A stretch of DNA of 64,000 nucleotides from Pseudoclavibacter helvolus. Its GTDB lineage: Bacteria > Actinomycetota > Actinomycetes > Actinomycetales > Microbacteriaceae. Position 1 is the first letter of the stretch, and each line of letters starts with the position of its first letter. The DNA is taken from positions 1 to 64,000 of the forward strand of contig NZ_JACHWJ010000012.1 in assembly GCF_014191305.1 (NCBI RefSeq). Direction: 5' to 3'. The notes below the pieces were generated by a model. That model was not told where the DNA came from. It saw nothing but the letters and a program-made list of their open reading frames with translations, and ran no database searches. Made by a program: the position numbers and the translations under genes. Below are positions 6,111 to 34,375 of the stretch, piece after piece.

Positions 6111-7533
6111 GGCTCATCGCAATCGAGGGTGTAGGTGGGATCTGAATCCTCCGGCTTCGAGTAGCGATCTGGCAACATAGTTCGTCAGGTTTCGGAAGCC
6201 GAGCGCTGAGCCTCTGAGGTGTTCGAGGCGGCCGTTGATCGCCTCCGTGGGGCCGTTGCTGGTGCCGGGGCGGTCGAAGTAAGCGAGCACGTCAGCGGCG
6301 CGCTGTTTCAACGTTCGGCCGAGGCGACGGATCTCGATCAGCGCGGTGGGAACACCGCTGGTGACGGCGTCGATGACGGCCTGCATCATCTGCTTGCCCT
6401 TGGTCTTGTCCGGTTCACGGTAGGCGGCAACGATGCGCTGGTAGATTCCCCAGGTCGCTTCAACCTCAACATGATCATCACCGGTGAATAGTGCTTGAAG
6501 GCGTGCGCGTTGCTTGTCGGTGAGGAGGCTGTCGCCGGTGTGCAGGGTGCGGCGGGCCTTGTAGAGCGGGTCGCCCGAACGGCCTCGATGCCCGAGCGTG
6601 GCCTGCTGAACGCGTTGCCGGCACCGATCCAGCCCGTCGCCGGCGAGGCGGACGACGTGGAACGGATCCATCACGGGGACCGCGTCGGGCAGCTCTTCGG
6701 CGGCGGCGGTCTTGAAGCCGCTGAACCCGTCCATCGCGACGACCTCGATCCGATCTCGCCACTGTTTCGGCCGCTGCGCGAGCCACTGCTTGAACACTGC
6801 CTTCGAGCGTCCCTCGACCATGTCCAGCAGTCGCGCGGGGCCGGTCTTGTCCCGCACGAGGGTGAGGTCGATGATGACCGTGACGTATTTGTCGTCCTTG
6901 CGCGTGTGACGCCAGACATGCTCGTCGACACCGATGGTGCTCACGCCGTCGAAACGGTGAGGGTCATCGATTAGACGTCGCTTGCCTTCGGCGAGGATCG
7001 CGCTGTTCGCGGTATGCCAGGACACCCCAAGCCCGGCGGCGGCACGAGAGACGGTGAGATGGTCGACCACGAGAGCTTCCAACGCCCACCGCACCCCGCT
7101 TCGGGAGATCTTCGTCCGCGGCGACGATGCCTTCGACATGTCCTGCCGCCAGGTGCGCTTGCAATGATCACACCGGTATCGACGAACCCGAACCTGCAGC
7201 GTCGTGGGCCGGTGACCGAACGGCTCATGCGCAAGACGACGAATCACCGTATCCCGAATGACGCCCTCGGCGCCGCACCCCCGACACCACGGATCAGCCT
7301 CAACGGCCCGGCACTCGATCACCGCCCGATCCGGCTCCAGGCGCTGCCCGACAGCTTGCAGGCCGAGCTCGTCAAGGCGACAGAAGGTAGTCAGATCGGG
7401 CGCGGCAAAGGTAGCGTGGAACACGTCGAGGTCTTTCCGGTGGACAGCGTAGGAACTTCCATCCTGGAAGACCTCGACCCCTATCCACCAATCGCCGCGC
7501 GCATCCTGACTACACCCTCATCTGCGAAGAGCC
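6111..7533 (-). mobile_element. ISL3-family insertion sequence, copy 3 (1423 bp)
   Basis: Ends are GGCTCATCGCAATCGAGG at 6111 and the complement of GGCTCTTCGCAGATGAGG ending at 7533. It appears identical to copy 2 but inverted, and is flanked by the perfect duplication GCATACCG. It is inserted in frame +1 of the Rad50/SMC-like gene. With copy 2 it forms a composite-transposon-like arrangement around 4473-6110. Confidence 0.95.
6114..7424 (-). CDS. ISL3-family transposase
   Basis: 436 residues, identical in sequence to the transposase of copy 2 and read on the other strand from a GTG at 7424. It contains the same zinc finger CxxC pairs, GVDEHVWR, VAMDGFSGFK and GPTEAINGRLEH catalytic blocks. 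Full length and intact, so it probably supplied the activity that produced the duplication at this site. Confidence 0.92.
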   Translation of the reverse strand: MFHATFAAPDLTTFCRLDELGLQAVGQRLEPDRAVIECRAVEADPWCRGCGAEGVIRDTVIRRLAHEPFGHRPTTLQVRVRRYRCDHCKRTWRQDMSKASSPRTKISRSGVRWALEALVVDHLTVSRAAAGLGVSWHTANSAILAEGKRRLIDDPHRFDGVSTIGVDEHVWRHTRKDDKYVTVIIDLTLVRDKTGPARLLDMVEGRSKAVFKQWLAQRPKQWRDRIEVVAMDGFSGFKTAAAEELPDAVPVMDPFHVVRLAGDGLDRCRQRVQQATLGHRGRSGDPLYKARRTLHTGDSLLTDKQRARLQALFTGDDHVEVEATWGIYQRIVAAYREPDKTKGKQMMQAVIDAVTSGVPTALIEIRRLGRTLKQRAADVLAYFDRPGTSNGPTEAINGRLEHLRGSALGFRNLTNYVARSLLEAGGFRSHLHPRLR

Positions 7534-10412: not shown

Positions 10413-10534
10413 CGTAGCGAGCACCGCCGACATAGCGGGCAACGTGTGCGGTAGATGGGCGCTGCGTCAGCCCGAGAGGTTCTCGTGCGGCACTCCCCTA
10501 CCGATAAACCCGCATCAGAGCTGCCACTTGCGTG

Positions 10535-10566
10535 CGGTCGTGCACATGCGCGCATGTGCACAACCG
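10535..10566. repeat. 32-bp near-perfect palindrome, candidate partition site
   Basis: The inner 20 bp, TGCACATGCGCGCATGTGCA, are perfectly self-complementary. The arms extend outward with one mismatch (CGGTCG against CAACCG), and further interrupted symmetry (ACTTG ... CAAGT) can be traced to about 10527-10573. It shares the TGCACATG words of the arrays on both sides of the ParA-like operon. Confidence 0.7.
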
Positions 10567-10710
10567 CACAAGTTCCCATGCATTCCGCTAGTGCTGATCA
10601 CTGCGGAGCAACCGTGACGCATCCATGCGGGGTCCTGAAATCAATGAGCGCGCGAGTGCCTACGCCGTGCGACGGACTCCATGTCGAAGAAAGGATGCGC
10701 TACCCAAGAC

Positions 10711-10810
10711 ACACAACCCGCGCGTGCGCATGTGCACATGCGCGCACCTACACACGCGCACAAGCACACACGCGCACAACTACACAAGCGCACTTGTGCA
10801 CATGTGCGCG
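10711..10810. repeat. Alternating purine-pyrimidine array, left of parA-like gene
   Basis: About 100 bp composed almost wholly of GCGCAC, ACACGC, GTGCAC and ACATGTGC words, alternating purine and pyrimidine. It ends 19 bp before the ParA-like start. The words recur irregularly rather than as fixed units. It could be a centromere-like binding array, a Z-DNA-prone tract, or both. Confidence 0.75.
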
Positions 10811-10828
10811 GCGTGGTTTTATGATGCG

Positions 10829-11413
10829 ATGAAGATCGCAGTAGTGAACCTCAAGGGCGGGACGGGTAAGACGCTGACGGTGATGCATCTCGCCGCCGAA
10901 CTCATGAGCAGGCAGGAGAGTGTTTTCGTAGTCGATGCGGACCCGCAGGGATCCGCGCTGGATTGGGCGAACGCGCTGGATTGGCAAGCGACAGCTCATC
11001 CGAAGAACACCATCCATCGACAGTCCTGGCTCAGCGGCGTGGCTGACCATGTCGTGATCGACACTCCTCCCGGTGATCTGGGGGTGGCAACGTCGGCCAT
11101 GCGCGCGGCCGATCTGATTTTGATCCCTATGCAGCCGACCGGGGGTGACTTCGCCCAGTTTGCTGAGACTGCGCAGTTGGTTGAGGAGGTGCAGGCGCTC
11201 ACTGATGCGCATGCAGCGGTGTTGCTCACTCGAGTCGTGAAGCGCACGCTCGCCTCGGTCCAAGTGCGTGAGGCGCTCGAACCGTTCGGCGTTCCGGTCC
11301 TGGAATCAACCGTTCCTCAGGCTCAGGCGCTTGCAATGGCCTACGGGGCGAAGATCGCACTGGGCACTGCGTACGCAGATGTCTTGACCGAAATTCGGGA
11401 GATGAGCAAGTGA
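10829..11413 (+). CDS. parA: ParA-family partition ATPase
   Basis: A 194-residue ParA/MinD ATPase that would position plasmid copies by ATP-driven binding to the nucleoid. The deviant Walker A is KGGTGKT (residues 9-15), the A' motif is VVDADPQGSALDWAN near 40, and Walker B is VVIDTPPGD near 75. There is no N-terminal HTH, so it belongs to the small (type Ib-like) ParA group, which leaves autoregulation to its small partner. The start is ATG 10829; the longer frame upstream is repeat DNA. The next gene overlaps by GTGA and encodes a ribbon-helix-helix protein, matching the usual ParA-partner pairing. Confidence 0.85.
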   Translation: MKIAVVNLKGGTGKTLTVMHLAAELMSRQESVFVVDADPQGSALDWANALDWQATAHPKNTIHRQSWLSGVADHVVIDTPPGDLGVATSAMRAADLILIPMQPTGGDFAQFAETAQLVEEVQALTDAHAAVLLTRVVKRTLASVQVREALEPFGVPVLESTVPQAQALAMAYGAKIALGTAYADVLTEIREMSK

Positions 11414-11643
11414 GCGAGAGTAAGAACATGTTCACCGCCGCGGGACGCACTGCGAGGCCGCAGCGCGCCAAGGCGGGGGAGCGAACCCAAGCTGCGGCGG
11501 TTGAAGAGGAATCGGTCTACCACTCCGCACGAGTGCCTCTCTCGCTTAGTAAGGAGATCAAGAAGCTCGCGCTCGAGGAGGGTACGTCGCAGCAGGCGCT
11601 TACAGTCGAGGCTCTGCGGCTGCTCCTTGCTAGCCGAAATTAG
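11410..11643 (+). CDS. Ribbon-helix-helix partner of ParA (centromere-binding candidate)
   Basis: 77 residues, GTG start overlapping the ParA stop (GTGA). Residues about 35-77 form a ribbon-helix-helix: a strand SARVPLSLSKEIKKLALEEG followed by TSQQALTVEALRLLLASRN. The N-terminal 30 residues are basic and flexible. In small ParA operons such proteins bind the centromere and repress the operon. The arrays directly upstream and downstream are the obvious binding sites. No canonical ParB is seen nearby. Confidence 0.75.
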   Translation: MSESKNMFTAAGRTARPQRAKAGERTQAAAVEEESVYHSARVPLSLSKEIKKLALEEGTSQQALTVEALRLLLASRN

Positions 11644-12008
11644 GACACTGGCGCCGCACCTAGTCCCACATGTGCATAAGTGCACGCACGCACATGTGCA
11701 CATGCGCAGGTCTGCACACACGCACGTGTGCGCGTGTGCGCGTGTGCACGTGTGCACGTGTGCGCGTGTGCGCGTGTGCACACGTGCGCGGAGGCCGACT
11801 TATCAGGTTGAGTGACAGTCGGTCGGCCGGATGTAGGCGGGCGTTCGGCGCCTGCTGGAAGTTGCCTGCTGCTGCGTGACTTCTTGCACGCGTGGTCCTG
11901 CACGTTCCGTGCAGTTCATCTAGCCCCCCGAGTATCAGTATCCGGCTTTATCGAGGCAGCGGTGCTAAGAATCGTGTCAGGTGAGCTGGCTCTGAGGAGG
12001 GATGACGG
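11644..12008. other. Intergenic region holding the right repeat array
   Basis: The first half is the array at 11667-11790. From 11791 to 12008 no gene, hairpin or promoter stands out, apart from the ribosome binding site (GAGGAGGGATGACGG) of the DUF2188 gene at its end. Confidence 0.6.
11667..11790. repeat. Alternating purine-pyrimidine array, right of parA operon
   Basis: About 124 bp of ACATGTGC, GTGCACGTGT and GCGCGTGTGC words. It begins 23 bp after the RHH gene stop. The right half (11715-11785) is almost pure alternating purine-pyrimidine, made of runs of CGCGTGTG and GCACGTGT. It mirrors the left array in words but not in exact order. Confidence 0.75.
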
Positions 12009-12233
12009 ATGGCTACTGGCGACGTAAGCACGTATAGCGAGGACGGTGTTTGGAAATCGAAGGTTGAGGGGAGCTCGCGTGCTGCGCATGTGGGTGGCAC
12101 CAAGTCCGAGCAGGAGGCAGTCGGCCGCGACATGGCAAAGGCTCGCCGCGTCGAGCACACGGTTCGTAAGCTAGACGGCACGATCGGCAAGAAGAACTCG
12201 TACGGCAACGACCCGAATCCGCCCCGGGGGTGA
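12009..12233 (+). CDS. DUF2188-like small protein
   Basis: 74 residues with a strong ribosome binding site (GAGGAGGG) just upstream. The pattern is a Trp in a short strand (GVWKSKVEG), a helix rich in Ala/Arg (EQEAVGRDMAKARRVEH), and a closing strand plus tail GTIGKKNSYGNDPNPPRG. This is the DUF2188 layout, a small domain common in actinobacteria and plasmids and without known biochemical function. It stands alone and is followed by a shared terminator at 12310-12340. Confidence 0.7.
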   Translation: MATGDVSTYSEDGVWKSKVEGSSRAAHVGGTKSEQEAVGRDMAKARRVEHTVRKLDGTIGKKNSYGNDPNPPRG

Positions 12234-12309
12234 TGGACGCTGGAGGGTGTCTAGCCCCTCGGTGTAGCATGGTGGTTACAACGGGCCGGCTACCGGAACG
12301 TTGCCAGCC

Positions 12310-12340
12310 AAAGGCCCCGCACTGCGGGGCCTTTGTTTTA
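12310..12340. terminator. Bidirectional rho-independent terminator
   Basis: AAAGGCCCCGC-ACT-GCGGGGCCTTT followed by GTTTTA. An 11 bp perfect stem with A/T tails on both sides serves the DUF2188 gene from the left and the DUF3800 gene from the right; the DUF3800 stop codon (TAA) lies within it. Confidence 0.9.
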
Positions 12341-13100: not shown

Positions 13101-13955
13101 TCATGCGGGCGGTCTCGTCGCTGCCTTGTTCTGCGCGGACGAGGGGGGAGTGGGCCGGACGCGTTTCTTGGCGGCCTCGCGGAGAGCTTCGCGTCGTTCG
13201 GTAGAGAAGTCTTCGAGCAACGTGTGTTCGGAGGCGAAGCGTCGCCCTTCGGGCGCGTTCGCGTCCTTGATCCATCGGTCTCTGCTGCTGAGCAGGTTCT
13301 TCGCGCGCAGCTCGGCCAGTCCCTTTTCGGTCGTTGTACGTGAGATCCCGTACCAAGCCTGTGCCTGGTCGATTTTCAGCGTCGTTGTCGACGTGGAACC
13401 GGTCTCCTTGAGAAGGATCAGCAGCGCGGCAAGCGCCGGCCAGGACAGCGTCGCGTAGAGCTCTTTGGTCCAGAGCTCGTGAGGTACGACCAGGTACGAG
13501 TCAGCACCCTTGCCCGTCGGAGCTTTGTAGGGGCCGGCCCCGGCTTCTGACCGAGGTGTTACCCGGATCAGGCGCCCTTGCCGTGGGAGCTCGACGAGGT
13601 CGAGGGCCTTGAGTGTTCGCCATGCGTTGGACAACGACTGTGGGTTCCAGGTGAGCGCGTTCTCTTCGTCGCTGGTCAGGAACCGTATCCAAGCAGAGGC
13701 TGAGATGGGGGCGTCTTCTCTCGACAACCAGGGCCAGTTCGCGAGCAGCGCGAGATAGAGCACCGTGGCTCGGTGGTTCCTGGTGAGCTTCGCCAACGTG
13801 CCGGGCCGACTGCTGTGACTGGTTTCAACTCGGGTCTGTACGAACGAGTGGCGAAGCTTGGTGTACCCGCTCTTGGTGCGGTCGAGGTAGATCTGCCGCG
13901 TCTCTGAGGGAGAAGCGGGATCTTCGTTGTCGGGATCTGGTTCGATGAGGTTCAT
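13101..13955 (-). CDS. Winged-helix protein, plasmid type
   Basis: 284 residues. Residues about 50-130 (YLALLANWPWLSREDAP through SLSNAWRTLKALDLVELPRQ) and again about 160-230 (LSWPALAALLILLKETG through YGISRTTTEKGLAELRAKNL) look like two winged-helix DNA-binding folds. The C-terminus is basic. I do not recognise a named family. Duplicated winged helices resemble plasmid replication initiators or transcription regulators, so a replication-control role is possible but unproven, particularly as a primase-like Rep lies elsewhere in the window. Confidence 0.65.
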   Translation of the reverse strand: MNLIEPDPDNEDPASPSETRQIYLDRTKSGYTKLRHSFVQTRVETSHSSRPGTLAKLTRNHRATVLYLALLANWPWLSREDAPISASAWIRFLTSDEENALTWNPQSLSNAWRTLKALDLVELPRQGRLIRVTPRSEAGAGPYKAPTGKGADSYLVVPHELWTKELYATLSWPALAALLILLKETGSTSTTTLKIDQAQAWYGISRTTTEKGLAELRAKNLLSSRDRWIKDANAPEGRRFASEHTLLEDFSTERREALREAAKKRVRPTPPSSAQNKAATRPPA

Positions 13956-20699: not shown

Positions 20700-21494
20700 T
20701 CATGGATTGAGGGTGTGCCAATGCTCGACTCGGCGGAGCAGGCGGGGTGAGAACCTGAGCGATCCGTCCCGTGCGCAGGTGACCGCGTCGATGTCGAAGC
20801 GGTCGGTGGCGTCGTTCAGCGCTGGGATGCCACCGGCGAGGATCGCGGTGGCGAGCGCGTCGGCGGTCACGATGTCGGCGGCGGCGACGGTGACTTGGAT
20901 GAATTCACGCTGGTTCGAGTGGGGGTCGCGGCGCCAGATGTGCTCGCCACGTTCGCCGATGCCGGAGGTCGCCACCGCACGCTGAGCTTCTTGCAGTGGT
21001 ACGGACATCAGGAGCGATGATCTGTCTGTGGGGTCGATGATGCCCACGGTCCAGTCTCGAGGCGACGGATTCTCTTGCGTACTGTTCTCGGTGCGTTCGC
21101 GCCCCCGCGCGAGGACATCACCGCCGACGTTGAGCAGCCAGTTCGCGACGCCGAGCTCGTCGAGCAGGTTGCCCGCTTCTTCCATGGCCTGCGCTTTCAC
21201 CACACCGGACAGGTCGATGACCCCGTCGGGGCGGTGCGGGGTGAAGGCTCCGGATGTGAGCGAGCGCCAGTCGAGCGCCCGTGCGTAGGTGTCCCTCGTC
21301 TGGAGGCTCGCGTCGGCGAGGCGGAGCTCACCGCGAGCGATGAGGCTCGCCTCGGACGCTTCTCGGTAGAGGCTGAACTTCGCGTCGGCGTTCGCGAAGC
21401 AGAATTCGACGGGAGCAAGCACCTTGGGGCTCACCTGGGCGTGTGTGCGCAAACTCGCGACGGTGCCCATCGTCGCGAACGTGTGGGTGCTCAC
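20700..21494 (-). CDS. apbE: ApbE-type FAD:protein FMN transferase
   Basis: 264 residues. It moves FMN from FAD onto a Thr of target proteins outside the membrane. Family landmarks are MGTVASLRTH near the start, a FANADAKFSLYREASEAS substrate block, DGVIDLSGVVKAQAMEEAG (usually DLGGIAKG), and WLLNVGGDVLARG. The late ATSGIGERGEHIWRR and VTVAAADIVTADALATAILAGG with Mg-binding acidic/Thr residues complete the family. It is the last gene of the six-gene leftward operon, overlapping the FMN-binding gene, whose SGAT motif is its expected target. No clear lipoprotein signal is seen, so its location is uncertain. Confidence 0.85.
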   Translation of the reverse strand: MSTHTFATMGTVASLRTHAQVSPKVLAPVEFCFANADAKFSLYREASEASLIARGELRLADASLQTRDTYARALDWRSLTSGAFTPHRPDGVIDLSGVVKAQAMEEAGNLLDELGVANWLLNVGGDVLARGRERTENSTQENPSPRDWTVGIIDPTDRSSLLMSVPLQEAQRAVATSGIGERGEHIWRRDPHSNQREFIQVTVAAADIVTADALATAILAGGIPALNDATDRFDIDAVTCARDGSLRFSPRLLRRVEHWHTLNP

Positions 21495-22018
21495 AGCCCC
21501 GCCTGGTCGAGCGCCGACTGCAGCGAGGACAGGTAGCCCTCGGTGGTGTAGGTTGCTCCGCTCACCGTAGAGACCTTGGCGGATTGTGCCGCGAGAACCT
21601 CCGCCCGGAGCACCGGTGCGGCACGGTTCGAGATCGCGACGGACCTGCCGTCGGCATCGGTGAGCTGCAGCGCTGTCACGTCCGTGATGGAGCCGCCGCT
21701 CACCGTGACCTGCACCTGGACGTTGCCGTAGCGAGTGCGCTGCGAATCGCCCGTGTACGTGCCATCGGCTGCAGTGGTCGTGGCCGAGCTCTGTCCCGCC
21801 GCGACCGGGTCAGTGGCCGTGCTGGGGTCGGGGGAGGCAGTGGGTGCGACGGCAGTGTCGGAAAGCGGGGAGCTCCCCGCCGTTGATGGCGCCGGAGCTC
21901 GCGACGTGGTGACGACGGCCTGTGGCTGATCGAGCGTTCCCGCGGCGCCGAGCTGCCACCCGGTGACGAGGACGGCGATCGACGCGATGACGCTGGCAAC
22001 TGCTGCTCGTGTTCTCAC
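21491..22018 (-). CDS. Exported FMN-binding domain protein, ApbE substrate
   Basis: 175 residues, GTG start at 22018 overlapping the reductase stop (GTGA). One N-terminal transmembrane or signal segment (VASVIASIAVLVTGWQLG), then a Ser/Thr/Pro/Ala-rich linker to about residue 85. An FMN-binding domain follows, with GTYTGDSQRTRYGNVQVQV and closing VSTVSGATYTTEGYLSSLQ. SGAT is the canonical flavinylation site; the Thr would carry covalent FMN. It would accept electrons from the reductase encoded just upstream and pass them on outside the membrane. Its stop overlaps the ApbE start by 4 bases. Confidence 0.85.
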   Translation of the reverse strand: MRTRAAVASVIASIAVLVTGWQLGAAGTLDQPQAVVTTSRAPAPSTAGSSPLSDTAVAPTASPDPSTATDPVAAGQSSATTTAADGTYTGDSQRTRYGNVQVQVTVSGGSITDVTALQLTDADGRSVAISNRAAPVLRAEVLAAQSAKVSTVSGATYTTEGYLSSLQSALDQAGL

Positions 22019-23514
22019 CAGTCGAACCTCTCTGTGTGGATCTGCTGATCGGGGAGACCTGCGGCCTTCGCGTCCCTGACGACGAGGTCGGTCCAAGCAC
22101 TCGGCCCGCAGATGTACAGGTCGGAGGAGCAGAGGTCGGGGAACACCGACTCGAGGGTCACACCTCGACCGAGGTCGTTGGCGGACATCCAGGTGCTGGT
22201 GCCCGCAGGGCGCTGCCCCACCATCGAGTGGACACGACTGCCCGTGCGCTTGGCGAGGTGCGCCATCTCATCCCACAGGTACGCCTGGGTCGGGTCGGTG
22301 GCCCGGAGGAGCACGGTTGCCTCGCCGGGTTCGAGCCTCGAGTGCTCGAGCAGCGCGCGTGCGGGGGTGATGCCGATGCCGGCGGTGATGACGGCGAGCT
22401 TCGGGGACGTGCGAGCGACGGGCGTGAAGGTCCCGTACGGGCCCTCGATGGAGACTCTCGTTCCGGGGCGGAGGCGAGAGAGGCGGCGTGTGCCGGAACC
22501 GAGCTCGCGAACAGTGATGCGCGCGTGCTCGTCGCCCGGGACCGCCGAGAAGGAGATGGGGTGCGCGTGCCACCAGGTCGCGCCATTCCAGAACCGCCAG
22601 ATCGCGTACTGGCCGCCGTTCGCGCCGAGGCGGCGCAGCTTCCGTCCGCTCAGATGGATGGAGAACACACCGGGCGCGATGGCCTCGACTCCCTCCACAC
22701 GCAGGTGATGGCGAAGCGATCGGATCGTGGGAGTCAGGAACCGGAACCAGGCGATGGAGCCGAAGGCGATCGCGTAGAGGCCGATCCAGTACGCGCGCTG
22801 TGGACCTCCTTCGGCGAGGACCTGCCCTGTGGAGAGCTGATGCGGCACGGCGGTGAGCACGGCGGCGTAGCTCAGCAGGTGAATGGCATGCCAGGCCTCG
22901 TAGGGGAATCTGCGCCTGACGGCGACAACCGAGGTGACGACGACCACGATGAGGAGGGCCATCGCGAGCACCGCGAGCAGGATGTCGGAAGCGCTCAGCA
23001 GCGAGATGGACTCTGCGATCACGCTGGAGCCGTCTGTCATGGCGTAGCCGATGATGAGCAGAGCCCCGTGCCCGAGGAGCAGGAAGAGGGCGGGCTTCCC
23101 CAGCCGCCGGTGAAGCGCCATGGCTTCGTCGAGGCCAACCGCGCGATCGACTGCAGGGATGCGAGCGGCGAGCACGAGCATCAGCAGGATCAGGTCGGTT
23201 CCCACGAGACCCGCGACGATGCCGACTGCCGTCACAACATCGCCGGGGGTCGCGATGCTCGCGGCGCCTCCGCTCGACAGGAACAAGGCGATCGCGGCGG
23301 CGACCGAAACCCAGCAGGCGGTGACGAGCAGGTCCGCCGCGCGGAGGCGACGGCGGTGCATGCGCGTCCTGGTCTGCGCGACCCGCTCACGGCTTGTCGG
23401 TGGCATCGTGGGCGCCTGGTCCGCGGGGGCGCTGGTGGTGTGCTGGGCGGTCACGTCGGTTCCCTCTGCAACTCTCGGGTCTCCGCTCCGAGTGCTCGGT
23501 GCGGTGGTGTCCAT
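22015..23514 (-). CDS. Ferric-reductase-like membrane flavocytochrome
   Basis: 499 residues. N-terminal ~50 residues polar; six membrane segments to about residue 255 with conserved His pairs (MALHRRLGKPALFLLLGHGA, FPYEAWHAIHLLSYAAVL) for two b haems. Then a ferredoxin-reductase-like FAD domain (HAHPISFSAVPGDEHARITV) and an NAD(P) domain (LAVITAGIGITPARALLEHS, SSDLYICGPSAWTDLV). It would carry electrons from cytoplasmic NAD(P)H across the membrane. It starts 61 bp after the histidine kinase gene and is coupled to the FMN-binding gene. The electron acceptor (iron, or an FMN chain) is inferred. Confidence 0.85.
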   Translation of the reverse strand: MDTTAPSTRSGDPRVAEGTDVTAQHTTSAPADQAPTMPPTSRERVAQTRTRMHRRRLRAADLLVTACWVSVAAAIALFLSSGGAASIATPGDVVTAVGIVAGLVGTDLILLMLVLAARIPAVDRAVGLDEAMALHRRLGKPALFLLLGHGALLIIGYAMTDGSSVIAESISLLSASDILLAVLAMALLIVVVVTSVVAVRRRFPYEAWHAIHLLSYAAVLTAVPHQLSTGQVLAEGGPQRAYWIGLYAIAFGSIAWFRFLTPTIRSLRHHLRVEGVEAIAPGVFSIHLSGRKLRRLGANGGQYAIWRFWNGATWWHAHPISFSAVPGDEHARITVRELGSGTRRLSRLRPGTRVSIEGPYGTFTPVARTSPKLAVITAGIGITPARALLEHSRLEPGEATVLLRATDPTQAYLWDEMAHLAKRTGSRVHSMVGQRPAGTSTWMSANDLGRGVTLESVFPDLCSSDLYICGPSAWTDLVVRDAKAAGLPDQQIHTERFDW

Positions 23515-23575
23515 TCAGAGTGCGGTCGGGGCCTCGACGGAGCCGGTGAGAACGTGCCTCACTGGATTCGAGAAC

Positions 23576-25051
23576 TCACATGTTCGCGCCACGGGGCGAA
23601 CTGGGGAGGGTGACGGTCACTCGAGCACCCCCTTGTGCGAGGTTGACGATCGCGGCCACGCCGCCGGCGTTGCGAGCGAGCGCCTCGACGAGCGCGAGCC
23701 CGAGTCCACTGCCGCCGCTGCTCGTGTCCCTGGCCTCGTCTGGGCGGGTGAAGCGTTCGAATGCGTGGGGGATGAACGATTCTGGGAGGCCTTTCCCTGT
23801 GTCGCTTACCGTGAGCTCGACGGCGCCATCCTGCTGGCGGAGCTCGAGGTGGATTCTGCCAGCATCCGTCCCCCTCGTCGCCGCGATCGCGTTCGCCAGC
23901 AGGTTGTCGAGGATTCGGGAGAAGGCGGGCGCGGAAAGACGCGTGCGGTCTGTCGAGTCCTCGAGGTCGATCGTGAATTCGATATCTGGGCCGCGGGTGC
24001 CGGCGATCAGCCGAGCACGGTCCACCGCGCTCATCATCTCGGACTCGAGCTCGACGAGGTCGGCTGCCTGTTCCGCTTCGTTCGAACTCTGGCCGCGCAG
24101 GGCGTCGAGGCGCGACAGCTCGAGGAGGTTCGCGGCGAGCCGCGCGAGCCGCTCCAAGGAGCCTTGCGCGGCTCGGATCTCGTGTTCCAGTGCGGGAGCG
24201 TCACCGAACGAGCGATGAGCGAGCTCCAGCTGCGTCGTCAGCGCAGCGATGGGTGTGCGCAGCTCGTGACTGGCGGCCGAGACCATTTCCCGTTCTCGCG
24301 CGGCGGTGTCGCGCATCCCGATGATGAACGCGTTGAGCGTCTCCGCGAGGTCGGCGAGTTCGTCGCGAGCGGGTCCGACCGGCAACAGCGTCTCGCTCGA
24401 CTCCGTGCTCAGCGTGCGAGCGATGCGCCTCATCCGGCTGACCGGCCGGAGCGCGGCCGTGGTGAGCGCCCAGGCGGTGAAGCCGAAGACGACCACCAGG
24501 AACCCTGCTCCGATGACCAGCGCCTGGTCGAGCGCCTCGACGGTCAGATCGCTCCCGGCGCCGCTGCGTGCCGAGACGAGCTGCCATCGGCCCTCTCCTG
24601 AGGTGACCGTTTCGGCGACCAACGTGAAGCGGACGTCCTCGTCGGTCACCATCGTCGAGACGCCCTCGGCCGCGAGCCTCGTTGGCTGGTTCCCGCTCCC
24701 GTCAGCGCCACGAGAGGCATCATCAGCGGGTGAGTCCGGTCCCTTGCCGCGGCCCTCGATCGCCGCACGGACGTCGTGGGGCATCGTATCGACTGGGACG
24801 GAGCCATCGGGCGCACGAATGTAGACCAGGACACCGGCGCTCGGCGCATCCGGTGCCTCATCTGGGTTGCTCGAGATATCAGCCACGTACGGGGCCAGGT
24901 CGCCCGTCGCCAGCGTCACCTCGGCATCGCGGACGAACTGGGCGAGCTGCAGGTGCACGGCGAACGCCGCGCCCGAGACGACGAGGGTCGCCACGAGCAC
25001 GCTGCCGAGCGCGATACGGGCGCGGATGGACAGGGAGCGGAGCCACGTCAT
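23576..25051 (-). CDS. Sensor histidine kinase
   Basis: 491 residues from ATG 25051, overlapping the response regulator stop (ATGA). TM1 near residues 10-32, an extracytoplasmic sensor to about 175 with an Asp/Pro-rich loop, TM2 near 178-198, then HAMP. The phospho-accepting His lies in SAASHELRTPIAALTTQLEL. Catalytic boxes are N (ILDNLLANAIAATRGTD), G1 (TVSDTGKGLP), F (HAFERF) and G2 (GGSGLGLALVEALA). The signal is unknown; neighbours suggest metal or redox state. A longer in-frame start within the regulator gene is rejected. Confidence 0.9.
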   Translation of the reverse strand: MTWLRSLSIRARIALGSVLVATLVVSGAAFAVHLQLAQFVRDAEVTLATGDLAPYVADISSNPDEAPDAPSAGVLVYIRAPDGSVPVDTMPHDVRAAIEGRGKGPDSPADDASRGADGSGNQPTRLAAEGVSTMVTDEDVRFTLVAETVTSGEGRWQLVSARSGAGSDLTVEALDQALVIGAGFLVVVFGFTAWALTTAALRPVSRMRRIARTLSTESSETLLPVGPARDELADLAETLNAFIIGMRDTAAREREMVSAASHELRTPIAALTTQLELAHRSFGDAPALEHEIRAAQGSLERLARLAANLLELSRLDALRGQSSNEAEQAADLVELESEMMSAVDRARLIAGTRGPDIEFTIDLEDSTDRTRLSAPAFSRILDNLLANAIAATRGTDAGRIHLELRQQDGAVELTVSDTGKGLPESFIPHAFERFTRPDEARDTSSGGSGLGLALVEALARNAGGVAAIVNLAQGGARVTVTLPSSPRGANM

Positions 25052-25737
25052 GACGTGCGCTCGCTGCTTGTGACGAGCTGGTAGCCCGCGCCGCGCACGG
25101 TCGCGATGCGGACTCCAGCGCCGCTCGGCTCGAGCTTCTTGCGCAGGTAGCTCACGTACTGGTCGACGATGGTCGGCTCGAAGTGCTCGACGGATCCCCA
25201 CACTTCGTCGAGGATGTCCGCTCGAGAACACACCTCCCCCGGGTGCGCTGCGAGGTGACGCAGCAGCGCGAACTCCTTCATGCTCAGGGGGAACGGCCGT
25301 CCGTGCACGCTCGCGCGGACGGCGAGCGAATCGAGCCTGAGGGCGCCGACTTCGAGCACCGGTTGCGGAGAGCCCGATTGACGGCGGAGCTGCGCCCGGA
25401 TGCGGGCGCTGAGTTCCCCGAAATGGAACGGCTTCGTGACGTAGTCGTCGGCACCCGCGTCGAGCCCGAAGATACGATCATCGACGCTATCCCTGGCCGT
25501 GATGACGATCACGGGCAGCTGGCTCCCTGACTCGCGGATGCGCCTGCACACCTCGAAGCCACTCATCTTGGGGAGCATCACGTCTACCACTGCGACGTCG
25601 AGCGGGCCGCTCGAGAACGCGATGAGCGCATCCACCCCGTTTCCGACCAGCGTGACGTCGTGCCCCTCCTCGCTGAGACCGCGATCGAGCAGCGCCCCCA
25701 TCGTCGGGTCGTCTTCGACAACGAGGATCCGGGCCAT
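25048..25737 (-). CDS. OmpR/PhoB-type response regulator
   Basis: 229 residues. Receiver domain 1-118 with acidic pair D9/D10, phospho-acceptor D52 (VAVVDVMLPKMSGFEV), T (VIVITARDS) and K (DYVTKPFHFGEL). The winged-helix output domain has FPLSMKEFALLRHLAAHPGE and VDQYVSYLRKKLEPSGAGVRI. It shares one base with the VIT gene stop and overlaps the kinase by ATGA, so all three are one transcript. It probably controls this operon in response to the extracytoplasmic signal. Confidence 0.92.
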   Translation of the reverse strand: MARILVVEDDPTMGALLDRGLSEEGHDVTLVGNGVDALIAFSSGPLDVAVVDVMLPKMSGFEVCRRIRESGSQLPVIVITARDSVDDRIFGLDAGADDYVTKPFHFGELSARIRAQLRRQSGSPQPVLEVGALRLDSLAVRASVHGRPFPLSMKEFALLRHLAAHPGEVCSRADILDEVWGSVEHFEPTIVDQYVSYLRKKLEPSGAGVRIATVRGAGYQLVTSSERTS

Positions 25738-26480
25738 CAGACCACGCCGGAAGTTCCGAGCAGAGAGCCGATGAGGAACGTCGCCCCGAGCGCCACGGCG
25801 CCTCCGGCGACAACGCGGATGGTCGGCCGCAGGGCTGGGCTCCCGCCGATGCGGGCGCCGAGGTAGCCGGTCGCCGCCAGCGCGAACAGCACGACCGCGA
25901 AGGTGGCTTGGATCCGGATGCTCTCGGGGAGCAGCAGAATCGAGAGGAGTGGGAGGAGCGCACCGATCGTGAACGCGAGTGCGGACGCTCCGGCGGCTGC
26001 GAGCGGGCTGGCCACCGCTTCTTCACTGAGGCCGAGCTCCGTCTCAAGGTGAGCCGTGAGAGCGTCCTTGGCGGTGAGTTCGACGGCCACCTGGCGTGCG
26101 GTGTCGGGGCTGAGGCCCTTGGCCTCGTAGAGGCCTGCAAGCTCGATGAGCTCTGCTTCCGGTTCCTCCGCGAGCTCGCGGCGCTCCTTCGCGATCAGGG
26201 CCTTCTGGCTGTCGCTCTGGCTGCTCACGGAGACGTACTCGCCGAGCGCCATGGAGATGGCACCGCCGACGAGCCCAGCCGTGCCCGCGGTGAGGATGGC
26301 CGGAATCGCTGTCGTGGCTCCCGCCACACCGACGACGAGCGCAGCGACGGAGACGATGCCATCATTGGCGCCGAGCACCCCGGCTCGGAGCCAGTTGAGC
26401 CTGCCGTGAATGGAAGCATCGTGTGGCTCGTGGGCATGGGCACCCGGGGTGGGCGCAGCGGGGGTCGTCATAGGCGTCAT
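25737..26480 (-). CDS. VIT/CCC1-family Fe2+/Mn2+ transporter
   Basis: 247 residues. The VIT1/CCC1 signature is clear: a hydrophilic His-containing N-terminus, WLRAGVLGANDGIVSVAALV, GAISMALGEYVSVSSQSDSQ with metal-binding residues, then a cytoplasmic helical domain rich in Glu (ERRELAEEPEAELIELAGLY), and three more membrane helices. It moves ferrous iron or manganese out of the cytosol. It heads the operon, so metal detoxification and the two-component-controlled flavin electron chain are expressed together. The first ATG is used; a second at residue 4 is possible. Confidence 0.88.
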   Translation of the reverse strand: MTPMTTPAAPTPGAHAHEPHDASIHGRLNWLRAGVLGANDGIVSVAALVVGVAGATTAIPAILTAGTAGLVGGAISMALGEYVSVSSQSDSQKALIAKERRELAEEPEAELIELAGLYEAKGLSPDTARQVAVELTAKDALTAHLETELGLSEEAVASPLAAAGASALAFTIGALLPLLSILLLPESIRIQATFAVVLFALAATGYLGARIGGSPALRPTIRVVAGGAVALGATFLIGSLLGTSGVV

Positions 26481-29078: not shown

Positions 29079-29489
29079 ATGGATGAGCAGGCTTCTCGCG
29101 GGCGGTTCTTCGACCGTCGTCGTCGCGCGAATGTCGAGGGTGGTCGGCAGCACCGTCACGAGGTGAAGGTGACGCCCGAGGAAGAGGGCGCGCTGCTGCG
29201 GAAGGCGAATGCCAAGGGGATCACCATTCCCCGGCTGCTCGTGGAGTCAGCTTTGGCCGAGGACGGTGCGGAGATTCCCTCGGATCGTCGCGCGTTGCTG
29301 GTGGACATGTTCGCCGCGTACCGGACGCTGGCGAGCTTGGGGAACAACCTGAACCAGATCGCGAAGGCGACGAACGCCGAGGGGTCGGTGCCGTCCGAGC
29401 TGCGGGAGCCGCTGCGCCACACGCTGGATGCAGTGCGCACGGCGGCCGTCGCAATGAATGCGGCCATCGAGGAGATGCCGAAGCCATGA
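29079..29489 (+). CDS. mobC: MobC-like relaxosome protein
   Basis: 136 residues from ATG 29079; GTG codons at 29070 and 29073 are alternatives after GAAAGGGG. Residues about 25-50 (RHEVKVTPEEEGALLRKANA) form an RHH-like strand-helix. The MobC landmark AAYRTLASLGNNLNQIAKATNAEG is at about 80-105. It binds oriT and helps the relaxase open DNA. Its stop overlaps the relaxase start (ATGA). Confidence 0.85.
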   Translation: MDEQASRGRFFDRRRRANVEGGRQHRHEVKVTPEEEGALLRKANAKGITIPRLLVESALAEDGAEIPSDRRALLVDMFAAYRTLASLGNNLNQIAKATNAEGSVPSELREPLRHTLDAVRTAAVAMNAAIEEMPKP

Positions 29490-31195
29490 TGCCGAATGTC
29501 GTGCGCGGTGATCGGATGACCGGCTTGCTGACGTATCTCGTCGGTCCAGGCCGCTCGAACGAGCACGAAGAACCACACCTGGTTGCTGGTGACAGCCCCC
29601 TCATGTCTTGGTACGACGACGCGGAGCTGAGCCGCGAATCCGCGGTCGAGATCGCTCGCCACCTCGACCTGCCGAAACGCATGTATGACACCGAGGTCAA
29701 CGGCGGCCACGTCTGGCACGCGTCACTATCGCTGCGCGCAGACGAGGGTCAGCTCACCGACGAGCAGTGGGGCCAGATCGCGGAGGAGTTCGTGCGCGAG
29801 ATGGGGTTCGATGACCACGAGGGCACGAAGGCACCGTGCCGTTGGGTCGCGGTCCGTCATGGCGTCTCGAAGAACGGCAACGACCACATCCACATCGCGG
29901 TGAATCTGGTTCGTGAAGACGGCACGAAAGCTCCCATCCACAATGACTACTACCGCGCGCAGCAGGTCACTCGTGCGCTGGAAACCAAGCACGGCTTGGA
30001 GGAGCTGGAGTCGGTGCGGCAAGAGCGCGCGACGCGCGGTTTCGACCCCGCGGAGCGCGAGGCGCAGGCGCGGTCTCGGGCGCGAGCTCGTTACGAGCGT
30101 GAGCGCGCGACCGGCGATACGAAGTCGCCCGCGTGGGAGGCGCTGTCCGGTGACGACCGGCGCACGAAAATCGCTGCCGAGCTGCACACTGATCAGCCCC
30201 GCTACCTCCTCTCGCTTCGCGTTCGAGGCGCTGCCGCTGCGTCACAGGACGAGGGGGAGTTCGTGCGCCGCATGCGCCGCGTCGGGCTGCTCGTGCGCCC
30301 ACGTTTCGCGGACGGTCGAACGGACGTCGTGACGGGCTACTCGGTGGCCGCGCGACCCACCTACGGGGAGCGTCCGATTTGGTACGGCGGTGGACAGATG
30401 GGCCGCGATCTGACGCTGCCGAGGTTGCGCGCAGAGTGGCCGGATACCCCCACGGGCGCATCCGATGCTGCCAAGGAATGGGAGGCCGCGTACCGTGGCC
30501 GTCGCGCCGTCGCGCCGGGGCGTGAGACGCAGGAAATCGACCCCGAGATGTGGGAGCGGCAGGGCAAGGAGCTGCAAGAGACGGTTGCTCGTTTGGAGCA
30601 GATTCCGGTCGAAGATCGCGAGACATGGGCGAGGGTTTCGCGACACTCCGCGGGCATCCTGGCTGCATGGTCGAATGCCACCGAGAAGACCCCCGGACAC
30701 CTCGCTGTCGCAGCCGAAGCACTGTCGCGTTCCGCGCAAACCTACCGGCAGCCTGAGCGTGAGCCGAAGGTGAACATGCAGGCCCTTGCGGGCACGGCGA
30801 TGATCGTCGCCGCGGCCACTCGCGGGGGTCAGGGCGTGGTCGCGCAGCGCGCCATGATTCGGCAGATGCTGCGACTCATGGGCGCGATTCACGACTACGC
30901 GGAAGCACACCGCCAGAAGACCATCACCGACCGCATCATGACCGACACCGGATACCGGCTCGCCGCCGTGCGTGACCGCCTCGACGCACGCCCGATTCCG
31001 GGCGTCGCGGTGAAGCAACCGGAACGTGACACGTCGATGATGAGCGAGAAGGCGCGCATCGCCTACGAGCACGAACGCATCGGTCAGGCGCGCCCGCCCG
31101 AGGAGGCCGTGCGGACGCCGCTGCCGAACAAGTTGGAGCAGCCGACGCGCACTTACGAACCGACACCACAGGCCGATACCGGCGTGGAGCGATAG
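29486..31195 (+). CDS. Relaxase (MobA/VirD2 type)
   Basis: 569 residues. The conserved N-terminal nuclease domain occupies about 1-180: MTGLLTYLVGPGRSNEHEEP, GHVWHASLSLRADEGQLTDE with the first His motif, and NGNDHIHIAVNLVREDGT holding the HxH of the metal triad. The catalytic Tyr is among the tyrosines near the N-terminus, not fixed by motif here. The rest is a helical, charged region. It nicks one strand at oriT and leads it into the secretion channel. ATGs at 29486 and 29489 are both possible. Confidence 0.85.
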   Translation: MMPNVVRGDRMTGLLTYLVGPGRSNEHEEPHLVAGDSPLMSWYDDAELSRESAVEIARHLDLPKRMYDTEVNGGHVWHASLSLRADEGQLTDEQWGQIAEEFVREMGFDDHEGTKAPCRWVAVRHGVSKNGNDHIHIAVNLVREDGTKAPIHNDYYRAQQVTRALETKHGLEELESVRQERATRGFDPAEREAQARSRARARYERERATGDTKSPAWEALSGDDRRTKIAAELHTDQPRYLLSLRVRGAAAASQDEGEFVRRMRRVGLLVRPRFADGRTDVVTGYSVAARPTYGERPIWYGGGQMGRDLTLPRLRAEWPDTPTGASDAAKEWEAAYRGRRAVAPGRETQEIDPEMWERQGKELQETVARLEQIPVEDRETWARVSRHSAGILAAWSNATEKTPGHLAVAAEALSRSAQTYRQPEREPKVNMQALAGTAMIVAAATRGGQGVVAQRAMIRQMLRLMGAIHDYAEAHRQKTITDRIMTDTGYRLAAVRDRLDARPIPGVAVKQPERDTSMMSEKARIAYEHERIGQARPPEEAVRTPLPNKLEQPTRTYEPTPQADTGVER

Positions 31196-32124: not shown

Positions 32125-32583
32125 TTATTGAGTCGTCCTGGACGCCTCCTCTGGCACGTATGGCAGCGGCTCTCCCGGACGATTTAGGTTCTCTGGGTTG
32201 TCGTGGTCAGCGCCAGCGAATGGGCCGTCCTTGTCCAGCAAGACGCGCATGTGCGGGTCGGCGTGGTTCAGGTACCAGACGCTGAGCCCGGTCGCGGAAT
32301 CTTTGCGCAGGAACTCCCACGCCCGCCACATCGCCCCAAGCCGTGACATCGCTTCGGGGTACTCCCAGTAGCGTCCCGCCCACACGCGCGCGTGACCGTT
32401 GATGTGCCGCGCGTATCCGCTGATCAGGAAGCCGCGCACGAACTCATCCAACGAGGCGTAGTACAGGTCAGACTCCTCAGTCGCACCCGACTCCACATCC
32501 GGTTCCACGTCGTCGTCGACGTCGCTCGGGTCGGGCGCGAACGCCGCCGCCCCGGTGCCGAACGCTTCCCAGTCCTTAGGCAT
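32125..32583 (-). CDS. DUF4913 domain protein
   Basis: 152 residues from ATG 32583, overlapping the coupling-protein stop by 8 bases. An acidic N-terminus (about 1-45) leads into the DUF4913 core: YYASLDEFVRGFLISGYARH, RVWAGRYWEYPEAMSRLGAM, WYLNHADPHMRVLLDKDGPF. DUF4913 genes accompany TraG-type coupling proteins in actinobacterial conjugative elements; molecular role unknown. It is the last gene of the leftward transfer operon. Confidence 0.82.
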   Translation of the reverse strand: MPKDWEAFGTGAAAFAPDPSDVDDDVEPDVESGATEESDLYYASLDEFVRGFLISGYARHINGHARVWAGRYWEYPEAMSRLGAMWRAWEFLRKDSATGLSVWYLNHADPHMRVLLDKDGPFAGADHDNPENLNRPGEPLPYVPEEASRTTQ

Positions 32584-34375
32584 TGACACCCTCCCTCCGC
32601 TGGCGCGCCTGCTCGTCGCGCAGCTCCTTCTCCGCGTCAGTGATCGTCTGCTGTCCCTGCGGGTCATACCTCCGGATGGACTCTTTCACCGCGTCGGCGT
32701 GCGCGCCAGCCATCCACGGGATGGTCTTGGCCAGCACCGGCCGGGAGCCGGACGCGAACACGATCGCGCGGCCCTTGGGGAGCGCGGTGAGGTCGTCGAC
32801 GTCCATGATCCGTTCTCGGTTCACGTTGTTCGAGACGGTGCGCTGCCCTCGCGTGTAGGAGGTGGTGGAGGTCTGTCGGTCTCGGTCTCCGATGACTTCC
32901 GACATGCTCTTCATGAACGCGGGCTCGTCGACGCCGCCGCCGTAGACCTTGATGTTGGAGGCGGACCAGAGCTTGCGCATGCCCGACTCGCCCCACACGT
33001 CCACGCCCTGCGACCAGGACTGCAGAATCGTCATGAGGATGATGCCGCGCGAGCCGTAGTGCGAATAGAGGCTCGGGAGCTGCGCCCACCGGCACACGTT
33101 CGCGGCCTCATCGAGCACGCCCACGAGCGGCACGCGCAGGCGTCCACCGGGGGACTGGCGGCCGAGCTCTTCGGCGGCTTCCGTGACGGCCACGGTCAGT
33201 GCGGTGACCAAAGGGCCGGCGGTGCTCTCCCCCTCCATGGAGAGGCTGTAGAGCGTGCCTGGGGTGCGCACGAACTCGGCGGGGTTGAAGTGCGGGCGCG
33301 CGTCGTGCTCGCCTTGCGGGTTTACCCACGCGGCCACTTGGCGGTTCGTGAGGCACGCGGCCATCTGCATGGCCGTGCCGTAGATGCCGCCGCGCTGTTT
33401 CTCGGGTGAGCGGATCACGCCGCGCAGCTGCTGTGCGAGCAGTGGGTAGTCGTGCTGCTGGAGGATCACTGCCGATTCTTCATCGTCGGGCTTCGCGAGC
33501 CACGTGTAGACGTCGGTGATCGGCCGCTGGTCGAGGGCCGCGGCGAGGAGGAGCCCTGCGAGGAGGTCTTTTCCTGCGGGCTCGAAGAACGCGTCCGTCT
33601 TGGCACCGGCTGGTCGGGAGCCGTTTGCGAAGTGGGCGGCGAGGTTCTTCGCCTTCACCTCGTCGGTCACGTACGAGAGGGGGTTCCACCACCACGTCGG
33701 TTGCTCGTTCGCGACGCCCTGCGGATCGAACACCCAGACCGGCCCCACGTTCGCGCGGACGCCACGGGTGGCGTCCACGACGTCGCGCTTGTTGGAGGTC
33801 ACCAGCACGCCCCCTGGAGCGTCCAGAATCGCCGGGATGGCACGAGAGGTCGTCTTTCCCGTGCGAGGCCCCCAGATGTCGATATGCATGTCTTCGACGG
33901 AGCCGTAGAGCGTCTGCCCGTCGATGACGGCTTTCCCGACCTCGACGCCCACGAATCCGTCGACGCCGAGACGCTGCGCGGTGCCTTCGACGGCCTTGCG
34001 CTTCAACCCGGCGATGTCGCGACCCCGGCCCATCGAGCGGGCCGCGTAGTCGACGCGGCTGCGCTTGCGGCCGCTTCGCATCTTGGCGATGAGGAACAGC
34101 GTGAGCAACGCGGCGAGGACCACACCGCAGCCAATCGCGACGACGGTGCCCCACACTCCGGGCCAGGCGAGATCGCCGCCGAGGAGCCCGAAAAGCATCT
34201 GGAACGGATCGACCGGGAGATTGGTGCCCGTGGCCGCGAGCTTGTGACCGAGAACCATCGAGACCCACACGACGGCGAGCGTGACCACGACGAGGCCGAT
34301 GCCCCAGAACATGAGCAGTGTGCCGCCCGAAAGGCGCGCCCCGTTGTCGTAGCGTTCCCGATGCTGTGAGCTCAT
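32576..34375 (-). CDS. Type IV coupling protein (VirD4/TraG type)
   Basis: 599 residues. Two N-terminal membrane helices (about 20-45 and 75-98), then the ATPase. Walker A is GPRTGKTTSRAIPAILD near residue 170, followed by VLVTSNKRDVVDATRG. Walker B is VPLVGVLDEAANVCRWAQLP near 410, then GIILMTILQSWSQGVDVWGE. It docks the relaxase-DNA complex at the secretion channel. The Walker A Gly-Pro-Arg variant differs from GxxGxGKT but is common in actinobacterial TraG proteins. It starts next to the VirB4-like gene stop with a 4-base overlap. Confidence 0.88.
   Translation of the reverse strand: MSSQHRERYDNGARLSGGTLLMFWGIGLVVVTLAVVWVSMVLGHKLAATGTNLPVDPFQMLFGLLGGDLAWPGVWGTVVAIGCGVVLAALLTLFLIAKMRSGRKRSRVDYAARSMGRGRDIAGLKRKAVEGTAQRLGVDGFVGVEVGKAVIDGQTLYGSVEDMHIDIWGPRTGKTTSRAIPAILDAPGGVLVTSNKRDVVDATRGVRANVGPVWVFDPQGVANEQPTWWWNPLSYVTDEVKAKNLAAHFANGSRPAGAKTDAFFEPAGKDLLAGLLLAAALDQRPITDVYTWLAKPDDEESAVILQQHDYPLLAQQLRGVIRSPEKQRGGIYGTAMQMAACLTNRQVAAWVNPQGEHDARPHFNPAEFVRTPGTLYSLSMEGESTAGPLVTALTVAVTEAAEELGRQSPGGRLRVPLVGVLDEAANVCRWAQLPSLYSHYGSRGIILMTILQSWSQGVDVWGESGMRKLWSASNIKVYGGGVDEPAFMKSMSEVIGDRDRQTSTTSYTRGQRTVSNNVNRERIMDVDDLTALPKGRAIVFASGSRPVLAKTIPWMAGAHADAVKESIRRYDPQGQQTITDAEKELRDEQARQRREGVNA

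What the first reader, a model, noticed from the sequence alone, without database searches (positions are those of the whole stretch)
10535..11790. Partition-like operon embedded in alternating purine-pyrimidine arrays
A small ParA and its RHH partner are bracketed by ~100 bp and ~124 bp arrays of GTGCAC/ACATGTGC words, plus a 32 bp palindrome of the same words. Known centromeres use regular short repeats; this alternating design is unusual and prone to left-handed DNA or cruciforms. The RHH protein may read such sequence, a possible new centromere type.
Basis: partly seen in the sequence, partly recalled or inferred. Interest (0 to 1): 0.75.

Follow-up and report, generated by a model that had tools for sequence, protein, structure and literature searches.

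The report
Plasmid partition centromere, 8-bp repeats
A bacterial plasmid carries a small two-gene segregation system flanked by its DNA "handles", and the odd-looking handle sequence turns out to be an 8-base repeat whose letters happen to alternate, so it is most likely a new example of a known kind of plasmid centromere.

Summary
parA (10829-11413) and an RHH parB (11410-11643) lie between two arrays, 10719-10806 and 11667-11790, with a 38-nt near-palindrome at 10532-10569. The downstream array holds a 78-bp unbroken purine-pyrimidine run; 60 dinucleotide shuffles of the window reach at most 21. The interpretation needs changing. The arrays are abutting 8-bp boxes of class CRCRYGYG; 19 of 31 in-frame boxes fit exactly. 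Shuffles that keep the R/Y pattern do not reproduce the box counts (0 of 5000 for either array) and almost never the pitch (1 of 3000, 0 of 3000). Among 31 par loci, lag 8 is best in 25 upstream flanks, against 24 of 428 control segments. The words differ, and outside the window no alternating run in these flanks exceeds 12 bases. The nearest relatives (74-75% ParA) use ACATGT-type boxes at the same pitch on both sides. Best reading: a type Ib parABS with parS on both sides, laid out like RedRock-type phage parABS. The alternation is most simply a by-product of the box sequence. A left-handed-DNA centromere is not excluded but gained no support. New member of a known kind.

The parts
10829..11413 (+). 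parA: 194-aa ParA-type ATPase with a deviant Walker A motif (KGGTGKT, residues 9-15) and no N-terminal DNA-binding domain
   Evidence: Pfam AAA_31 1.6e-16 and CbiA 8.7e-15; NCBIfam ParA_partition 7.3e-42, but 143.2 bits is under its cut-off of 180; best solved relative ParF 1.4e-14
11410..11643 (+). parB: 77-aa ribbon-helix-helix protein, presumed centromere-binding; RHH in the C-terminal half, preceded by an N-terminal arm
   Evidence: Pfam Antitox_RHH 28.9 bits against cut-off 27.2, residues 46-76; a profile of 13 ParBs hits a CopG-family RHH protein (4.1e-7) and ParG (5.4e-5) over profile positions 35-76
10719..10806 (.). parS-L: 11 abutting 8-bp boxes, consensus CRCRYGYG, mixed orientation, ending 22 bp before the parA start
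11667..11790 (.). parS-R: 15 abutting 8-bp boxes (11667-11786), same consensus, starting 23 bp after the parB stop; holds the 78-bp alternating run 11713-11790
10527..10569 (.). outlying box cluster (38-nt near-palindrome 10532-10569; boxes CACATGCG, CGCATGTG, CACAACCG), in the same 8-bp phase as parS-L
   Evidence: inverted repeat I16; frame listing
10797..10825 (+). possible parA promoter (TGCACA, 17 nt, TATGAT) overlapping the last boxes of parS-L; weak evidence
   Evidence: 1 found, mean 0.5 in shuffles

Best explanation
This is a type Ib parABS partition cassette of a conjugative or mobilizable plasmid, probably in a Microbacteriaceae bacterium. ParB dimers bind side by side, one per 8-bp box of class CRCRYGYG, on arrays on both sides of the operon (parS-L, parS-R, and a small outlying cluster). 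The ParB-parS complex recruits and stimulates nucleoid-bound ParA, which separates plasmid copies; ParB on parS-L probably also represses parA. The R/Y alternation follows from the box: it starts with C, ends with G, tolerates A/G at positions 2 and 4 and T/C at 5 and 7, and abuts its neighbours without a spacer. Shown: gene content, box pitch and consensus, the same pitch beside most related operons examined, plasmid-type genes on the contig. Inferred: ParB binding, one dimer per box, repression, and partition itself.
For: ParA and RHH families. Lag 8 best of lags 5-15 in 25 of 31 upstream and 12 of 31 downstream flanks, against 24 of 428 control segments. A word search allowing both orientations beats the best of 12 shuffles by more than 1 point in 26 of 31 upstream and 14 of 31 downstream flanks. 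RedRock shows the same layout in my data (L042); its ParB recognises two parS loci of 8-bp repeats and the cassette stabilises plasmids (PMC7157519 passages). In the window, positions 1,3 are C in 58 of 62 cells and positions 6,8 are G in 53 of 62, while positions 2,4,5,7 mix within class; 10 of 12 deviant boxes keep one intact CRCR half and only 2 of 12 keep alternation. Contig C12 (97,164 bp) carries a relaxase and a TraG-type coupling protein, plus a TrbL-like protein below Pfam's cut-off.
Against: No binding or stability data. ParB has no tblastn match in the plasmid collection at E 0.01 and none in the solved structures with the single sequence. ParA is under the NCBIfam equivalog cut-off. 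The consensus CRCRYGYG was derived from the same arrays on which it is scored; only the lag test avoids that. In 6 of 31 upstream flanks lag 8 is not the best lag: the window itself (14; lag-8 z 4.2), L006 and L011 (6), L063 (12), L056 (11), L057 (9); 17 of 31 downstream flanks are not above shuffles. No structure model was obtained.
Confidence: 0.86

Rival explanations
1. One reading: the arrays act through unusual DNA shape (left-handed DNA or cruciforms), and ParB or supercoiling senses that shape; a new centromere type.
For: 78-bp perfect alternating run made only of CG/GC, CA/TG and GT/AC steps, unique among the 31 par loci (next longest outside the window 12); 38-nt near-palindrome.
Against: Within the run C and T are not interchangeable between slots (positions 1,3: 18 C of 18; positions 5,7: 3 C and 15 T; Fisher 2.9e-7), though the matching G/A contrast there is weak (Fisher 0.04). 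R/Y-preserving shuffles lack the boxes (0 of 5000 for either array) and nearly always the pitch (lag 8 reached in 1 of 3000 for L, 0 of 3000 for R). 10 of 12 deviant boxes break alternation. The nearest relatives with a complete ParB (46-47% identical) have boxes that do not chain into long alternating runs (longest 9).
Confidence: 0.06
2. The arrays are simple-sequence (microsatellite) expansions without function that happen to flank parAB.
For: Exact GTGTGCRC x3 arrays occur in 13 viral-contig loci (12 contigs), none with a ParA relative within the fetched DNA (0 of 13 by tblastn with 7 ParAs at E 1e-4).
Against: The arrays sit 22 and 23 bp from parA and parB, share one consensus, and are not pure repeats (20 distinct among 31 boxes); related operons carry other words at the same pitch and place. 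A DNA search of the own 3.84-Mb assembly with the whole locus matched nothing outside it.
Confidence: 0.04
3. The arrays are replication iterons or an origin rather than a centromere.
For: Iterated sites are common at plasmid origins (recalled); the origin regions of RedRock-type non-RepA phages lie upstream of parA (PMC7157519 passages).
Against: No replication initiator was recognised among the 8 neighbouring proteins scanned (the 284-aa product of 13101-13955 has only sub-threshold HTH similarity) or the 20 further ORFs scanned, but the rest of the contig was not scanned. The pitch goes with parAB in many different replicons.
Confidence: 0.04

Closest known systems
RedRock-type actinobacteriophage parABS (Dedrick 2016, not held; described in PMC7157519, passages seen)
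   Same: Small ParA, small ParB, two parS loci flanking the operon, 8-bp repeats; in my data L042 shows lag 8 on both sides. An additional parS locus is reported for Miko and Rachaly.
   Different: RedRock is described with eight direct copies per locus; here 11 and 15 boxes in mixed orientation and a self-complementary class CRCRYGYG. RedRock's flanks do not alternate beyond 9 bases. ParB identity to the window's is 22%.
par cassettes of Mycetocola lacteus (L007), Leucobacter massiliensis (L008, cut off inside parB) and MT840037 (L005)
   Same: 74-75% identical ParA; 46-47% identical ParB for L005 and L007; 8-bp boxes on both sides for L005 and L007.
   Different: Boxes are of ACATGT type (GACATGTC, TACATGTA, GGCATGTA and the like), fewer, and do not chain into long alternation. 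L008's flanks were not examined.
pSM19035 delta/omega/parS (PMC9499535, passages seen)
   Same: RHH ParB; contiguous short repeats; one dimer per repeat; four or more contiguous repeats needed for full ParA activation, and different orientations of four repeats worked similarly.
   Different: 7-bp repeat WATCACW; genes transcribed separately (PMC5016525 passage).
pCXC100 type Ib partition (named in a PMC5016525 passage; its Leifsonia host is recalled)
   Same: Type Ib, RHH-type ParB, centromere upstream of the operon.
   Different: Direct repeats only, as stated there; its sequence was not examined here.
TP228 ParFG-parH
   Same: ParF is the best solved relative of ParA; ParG is found by the ParB profile.
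   [quoted passage not shown] here boxes abut.

Membership tests
Type Ib (RHH ParB) parABS partition | Short ParA with deviant Walker A and no N-terminal DNA-binding domain | tested here: met
   194 aa, KGGTGKT at residues 9-15, Pfam AAA_31/CbiA, nearest solved ParF
Type Ib (RHH ParB) parABS partition | Small RHH ParB encoded directly after parA | tested here: met
   77 aa, 4-bp overlap, Antitox_RHH just above cut-off, ParG by profile; no structure model
Type Ib (RHH ParB) parABS partition | Iterated centromere upstream of the operon | tested here: met
   11 abutting boxes at 10719-10806; that they are the centromere is inferred
Type Ib (RHH ParB) parABS partition | ParB binds the repeats, activates ParA and stabilises the replicon | not testable with these tools
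   needs experiment
RedRock-type two-sided parABS | 8-bp repeats in two loci flanking parAB | tested here: met
RedRock-type two-sided parABS | Eight directly repeated copies per locus | tested here: not met
   11 and 15 boxes, mixed orientation; so the layout is the same but it is not filed as that lineage
NCBIfam NF041546 ParA_partition equivalog | Score at or above curated cut-off 180 | tested here: not met
   143.2 bits
Alternating/left-handed-DNA centromere (hypothetical) | Alternation kept independently of the repeat sequence and in relatives | tested here: not met
Alternating/left-handed-DNA centromere (hypothetical) | Array adopts left-handed or cruciform DNA in the cell | not testable with these tools
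   needs chemical probing

The most novel reading that the evidence does not exclude
The box sequence has drifted to a form whose abutting copies make a strongly Z-prone tract, and the plasmid exploits it: superhelical stress would flip parS-R between right-handed DNA that ParB can bind and left-handed DNA that it cannot, tying centromere assembly to replication or transcription of the plasmid.
Probability: 0.05. Interest if true: 0.75.

Novelty: new member of a known kind. Interest (0 to 1): 0.32.

Why it matters
It replaces a striking but loosely defined pattern by a testable centromere model: 8-bp boxes, one ParB dimer each, on both sides of parAB. The comparison also suggests that an 8-bp pitch with freely varying words and orientations is common beside small ParA / small ParB operons of actinobacterial plasmids and phages (25 of 31 loci upstream; the set also holds one Deinococcus and one Xanthomonas plasmid). 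That offers a simple way to propose parS sites. It also offers a natural specificity pair: two ParBs 46-47% identical, with similar predicted beta strands (HSARVPL and HSTRVPV), next to related but different boxes.

Tried and rejected
Same arrays elsewhere: blastn of 10500-10828 and of 11644-11800 against plasmids gave no match. A GTGTGCRC x3 scan of viral contigs gave 13 loci on 12 contigs, none with a ParA relative. ParB by tblastn against plasmids: none for the window's ParB at E 0.01, none for the Mycetocola ParB at E 0.1. ParA in viral contigs: 17 stretches, none confirmed. Counts with the own genome included: same genus 1 of 10 at E 1e-15, same family 5 of 398 at E 1e-20, same order 13 of 396 at E 1e-20.

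Rows chosen and dropped: the 31 loci are the window, 8 of the 40 listed plasmid hits (of 3180 records), 4 phage records (3 of 20 listed, plus RedRock by accession), L007, five of the 29 non-own loci, 11 of the 12 non-own loci, and L065. I picked the plasmid and phage rows for spread of hosts, not at random. Dropped: L054 (same plasmid region as L045), L064 (identical to L007 over 1400 bp), L008 (contig ends in parB), L009 (26% partial match), and the other 24 non-own loci (L015, L017-L039; mostly short or weak matches, flanks not examined). First passes with wrong strand or a narrow motif were redone. For L056 and L057 no ParB was found, so the downstream flank starts at the parA stop. The ParB reading frame used for L050 (the record's annotation) looks doubtful. 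One search used 200-bp upstream and 160-bp downstream flanks, 12 shuffles each, and no control segments.

Considered and rejected: the promoter reading of parS-L as firm (1 found, 0.5 expected); circular closure of C12 (no end overlap found with 20-, 30- and 50-base ends).

Literature: searches were seen as listings; passages were seen of PMC7157519, PMC13245405, PMC5016525, PMC9499535 and PMC5559632. No paper was read whole.

Full report
What is there. parA (10829-11413) encodes a 194-aa ParA ATPase starting MKIAVVNLKGGTGKT (within the ORF), with Pfam AAA_31 at 1.6e-16 and ParF as its best solved relative at 1.4e-14. parB (11410-11643) overlaps it by 4 bases and encodes 77 aa with an RHH region: Antitox_RHH 28.9 bits against a cut-off of 27.2. 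A profile of 13 such ParBs finds a CopG-family RHH protein at 4.1e-7 and ParG at 5.4e-5. The window starts contig C12 of a 3.84-Mb assembly. C12 is 97,164 bp and carries a relaxase (29486-31195), a TraG-type coupling protein (32576-34375) and a TrbL-like protein below Pfam's cut-off (37438-39144), so it is most likely a conjugative or mobilizable plasmid. The host is probably a member of Microbacteriaceae: a genome in its family group carries a par stretch identical over 1400 bp to that of Mycetocola lacteus. This is an inference, since plasmids move.

The observation. The longest perfect alternating run is 78 bp at 11713-11790; 60 dinucleotide shuffles of the window reach 21 at most. The upstream array alternates only in pieces of 29, 14, 15 and 16 bp. 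Tandem Repeats Finder reports period 16 upstream and 8, 16, 24 and 32 downstream.

The hidden regularity. Read in 8-bp steps, the arrays are abutting boxes: 11 at 10719-10806, 15 at 11667-11786, and 5 in-frame positions at 10527-10566 around the palindrome. Of these 31 boxes 19 fit CRCRYGYG exactly. (One search counted 34 frame positions, with three edge positions that I then left out as not boxes; 19 of 34 fit.) This class is its own reverse complement, as expected for a symmetric RHH dimer. Positions 1 and 3 are C in 58 of 62 cells and positions 6 and 8 are G in 53 of 62, while positions 2 and 4 mix A with G (39 and 20) and positions 5 and 7 mix T with C (38 and 19). If only alternation mattered, C and T should be interchangeable in every pyrimidine slot; they are not (Fisher 4.8e-14 for all boxes, 1.3e-6 for the 20 distinct boxes; boxes are not fully independent, so these are guides). 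Within the 78-bp run alone the C/T contrast holds (2.9e-7) and the G/A contrast is weak (0.04). Shuffles that keep the R/Y pattern never reach the box counts (0 of 5000 for either array) and hardly ever the lag-8 identity (1 of 3000 for L, 0 of 3000 for R). The box consensus was derived from the same arrays, so the lag test is the cleaner one. Of the 12 deviant boxes 10 keep one intact CRCR half and only 2 keep alternation. Alternation is therefore most simply a by-product: the box begins with a pyrimidine, ends with a purine, alternates inside, and abuts its neighbour.

Relatives. I compared 160-bp flanks of 31 par loci (selection and dropped rows are listed under Tried and rejected). Lag 8 is the best of lags 5-15 in 25 of 31 upstream flanks and 12 of 31 downstream flanks, against 24 of 428 control segments of the same loci; lag-8 z of at least 2.5 occurs in 24 of 31, 7 of 31 and 5 of 428. 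The window's own upstream flank has its best lag at 14 (z at lag 8 is 4.2), because alternation raises even lags. A word search allowing both orientations finds arrays above shuffles in 26 of 31 upstream and 14 of 31 downstream flanks. Words differ widely: CTACAGCT (L011), GTCGAGTA (RedRock, L042), TTACTCAT (L055), AACTACTG (L053), TGCCGGTA (L047). The longest alternating run in the flanks of the other 30 loci is 12. The nearest relatives, with 74-75% identical ParA and, where complete, 46-47% identical ParB, carry ACATGT-type boxes such as GACATGTC and TACATGTA at the same pitch on both sides. Results against: upstream, lag 8 is not best in the window (14), L006 and L011 (6), L063 (12), L056 (11) and L057 (9), although the word search still finds boxes in the window, L006, L011 and L063; 17 of 31 downstream flanks are not above shuffles.

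Mechanism. By analogy with RHH systems, ParB dimers should sit side by side on the boxes. For pSM19035 one dimer binds each 7-bp repeat, at least four contiguous repeats are needed for full ParA activation, and different orientations of four repeats worked similarly (PMC9499535, passages). [quoted passage not shown] The present arrays, 11 and 15 boxes long and placed 22 and 23 bp from the genes, fit this. Repression of parA by ParB on parS-L is plausible, since the last boxes overlap a promoter-like site, but that site is hardly better than chance. Binding, repression and partition are inferred, not shown.

Known or new. The layout matches type Ib and RedRock-type parABS. It differs in copy number, in mixed orientation, and in the degenerate self-complementary word that makes it alternate. 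The one search I made for alternating or Z-DNA partition centromeres (search listing only, 10 of 19 papers listed) showed no such report by title or abstract start; many papers, Dedrick 2016 among them, are not held. I class it as a new member of a known kind.

Noticed in passing
L005 (MT840037.1) 1-1517: A record named 'Bacteriophage sp.' from human faeces carries a par cassette 75% identical in ParA to this plasmid's, next to what reads like a flavodoxin-type ORF (by eye); it may be a plasmid or a chimeric scaffold rather than a phage.
   Followed up: no
window 20700-26480: A redox/metal group of genes: ApbE family protein, ferric-reductase-like membrane protein, histidine kinase and a VIT-family protein.
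   Followed up: no
L056 (G354:C28) upstream of ParA: This ParA relative has an 11-bp period upstream instead of 8 (z 4.6), and no RHH ParB ORF was found by the script.
   Followed up: no
L067 2555-2650 and L072 5423-5518: Viral contigs with long arrays of GTGTGCAC/GTGTGCGC octamers and no ParA relative within the fetched DNA; ORFs around L067's array were listed without an explanation.
   Followed up: partly
window 10527-10806: The outlying box cluster and parS-L share the same 8-bp phase although 152 bp lie between them; a 1-in-8 coincidence or a trace of a once longer array.
   Followed up: no
window 12009-12335: A 74-aa DUF2188 gene follows parS-R and precedes a terminator-like hairpin with 12 pairs at 12309-12335.
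   Followed up: no
window 6114-7424 and 1137-1916: An ISL3-family transposase and a NucA/NucB-type nuclease domain lie upstream on the same contig.
   Followed up: no
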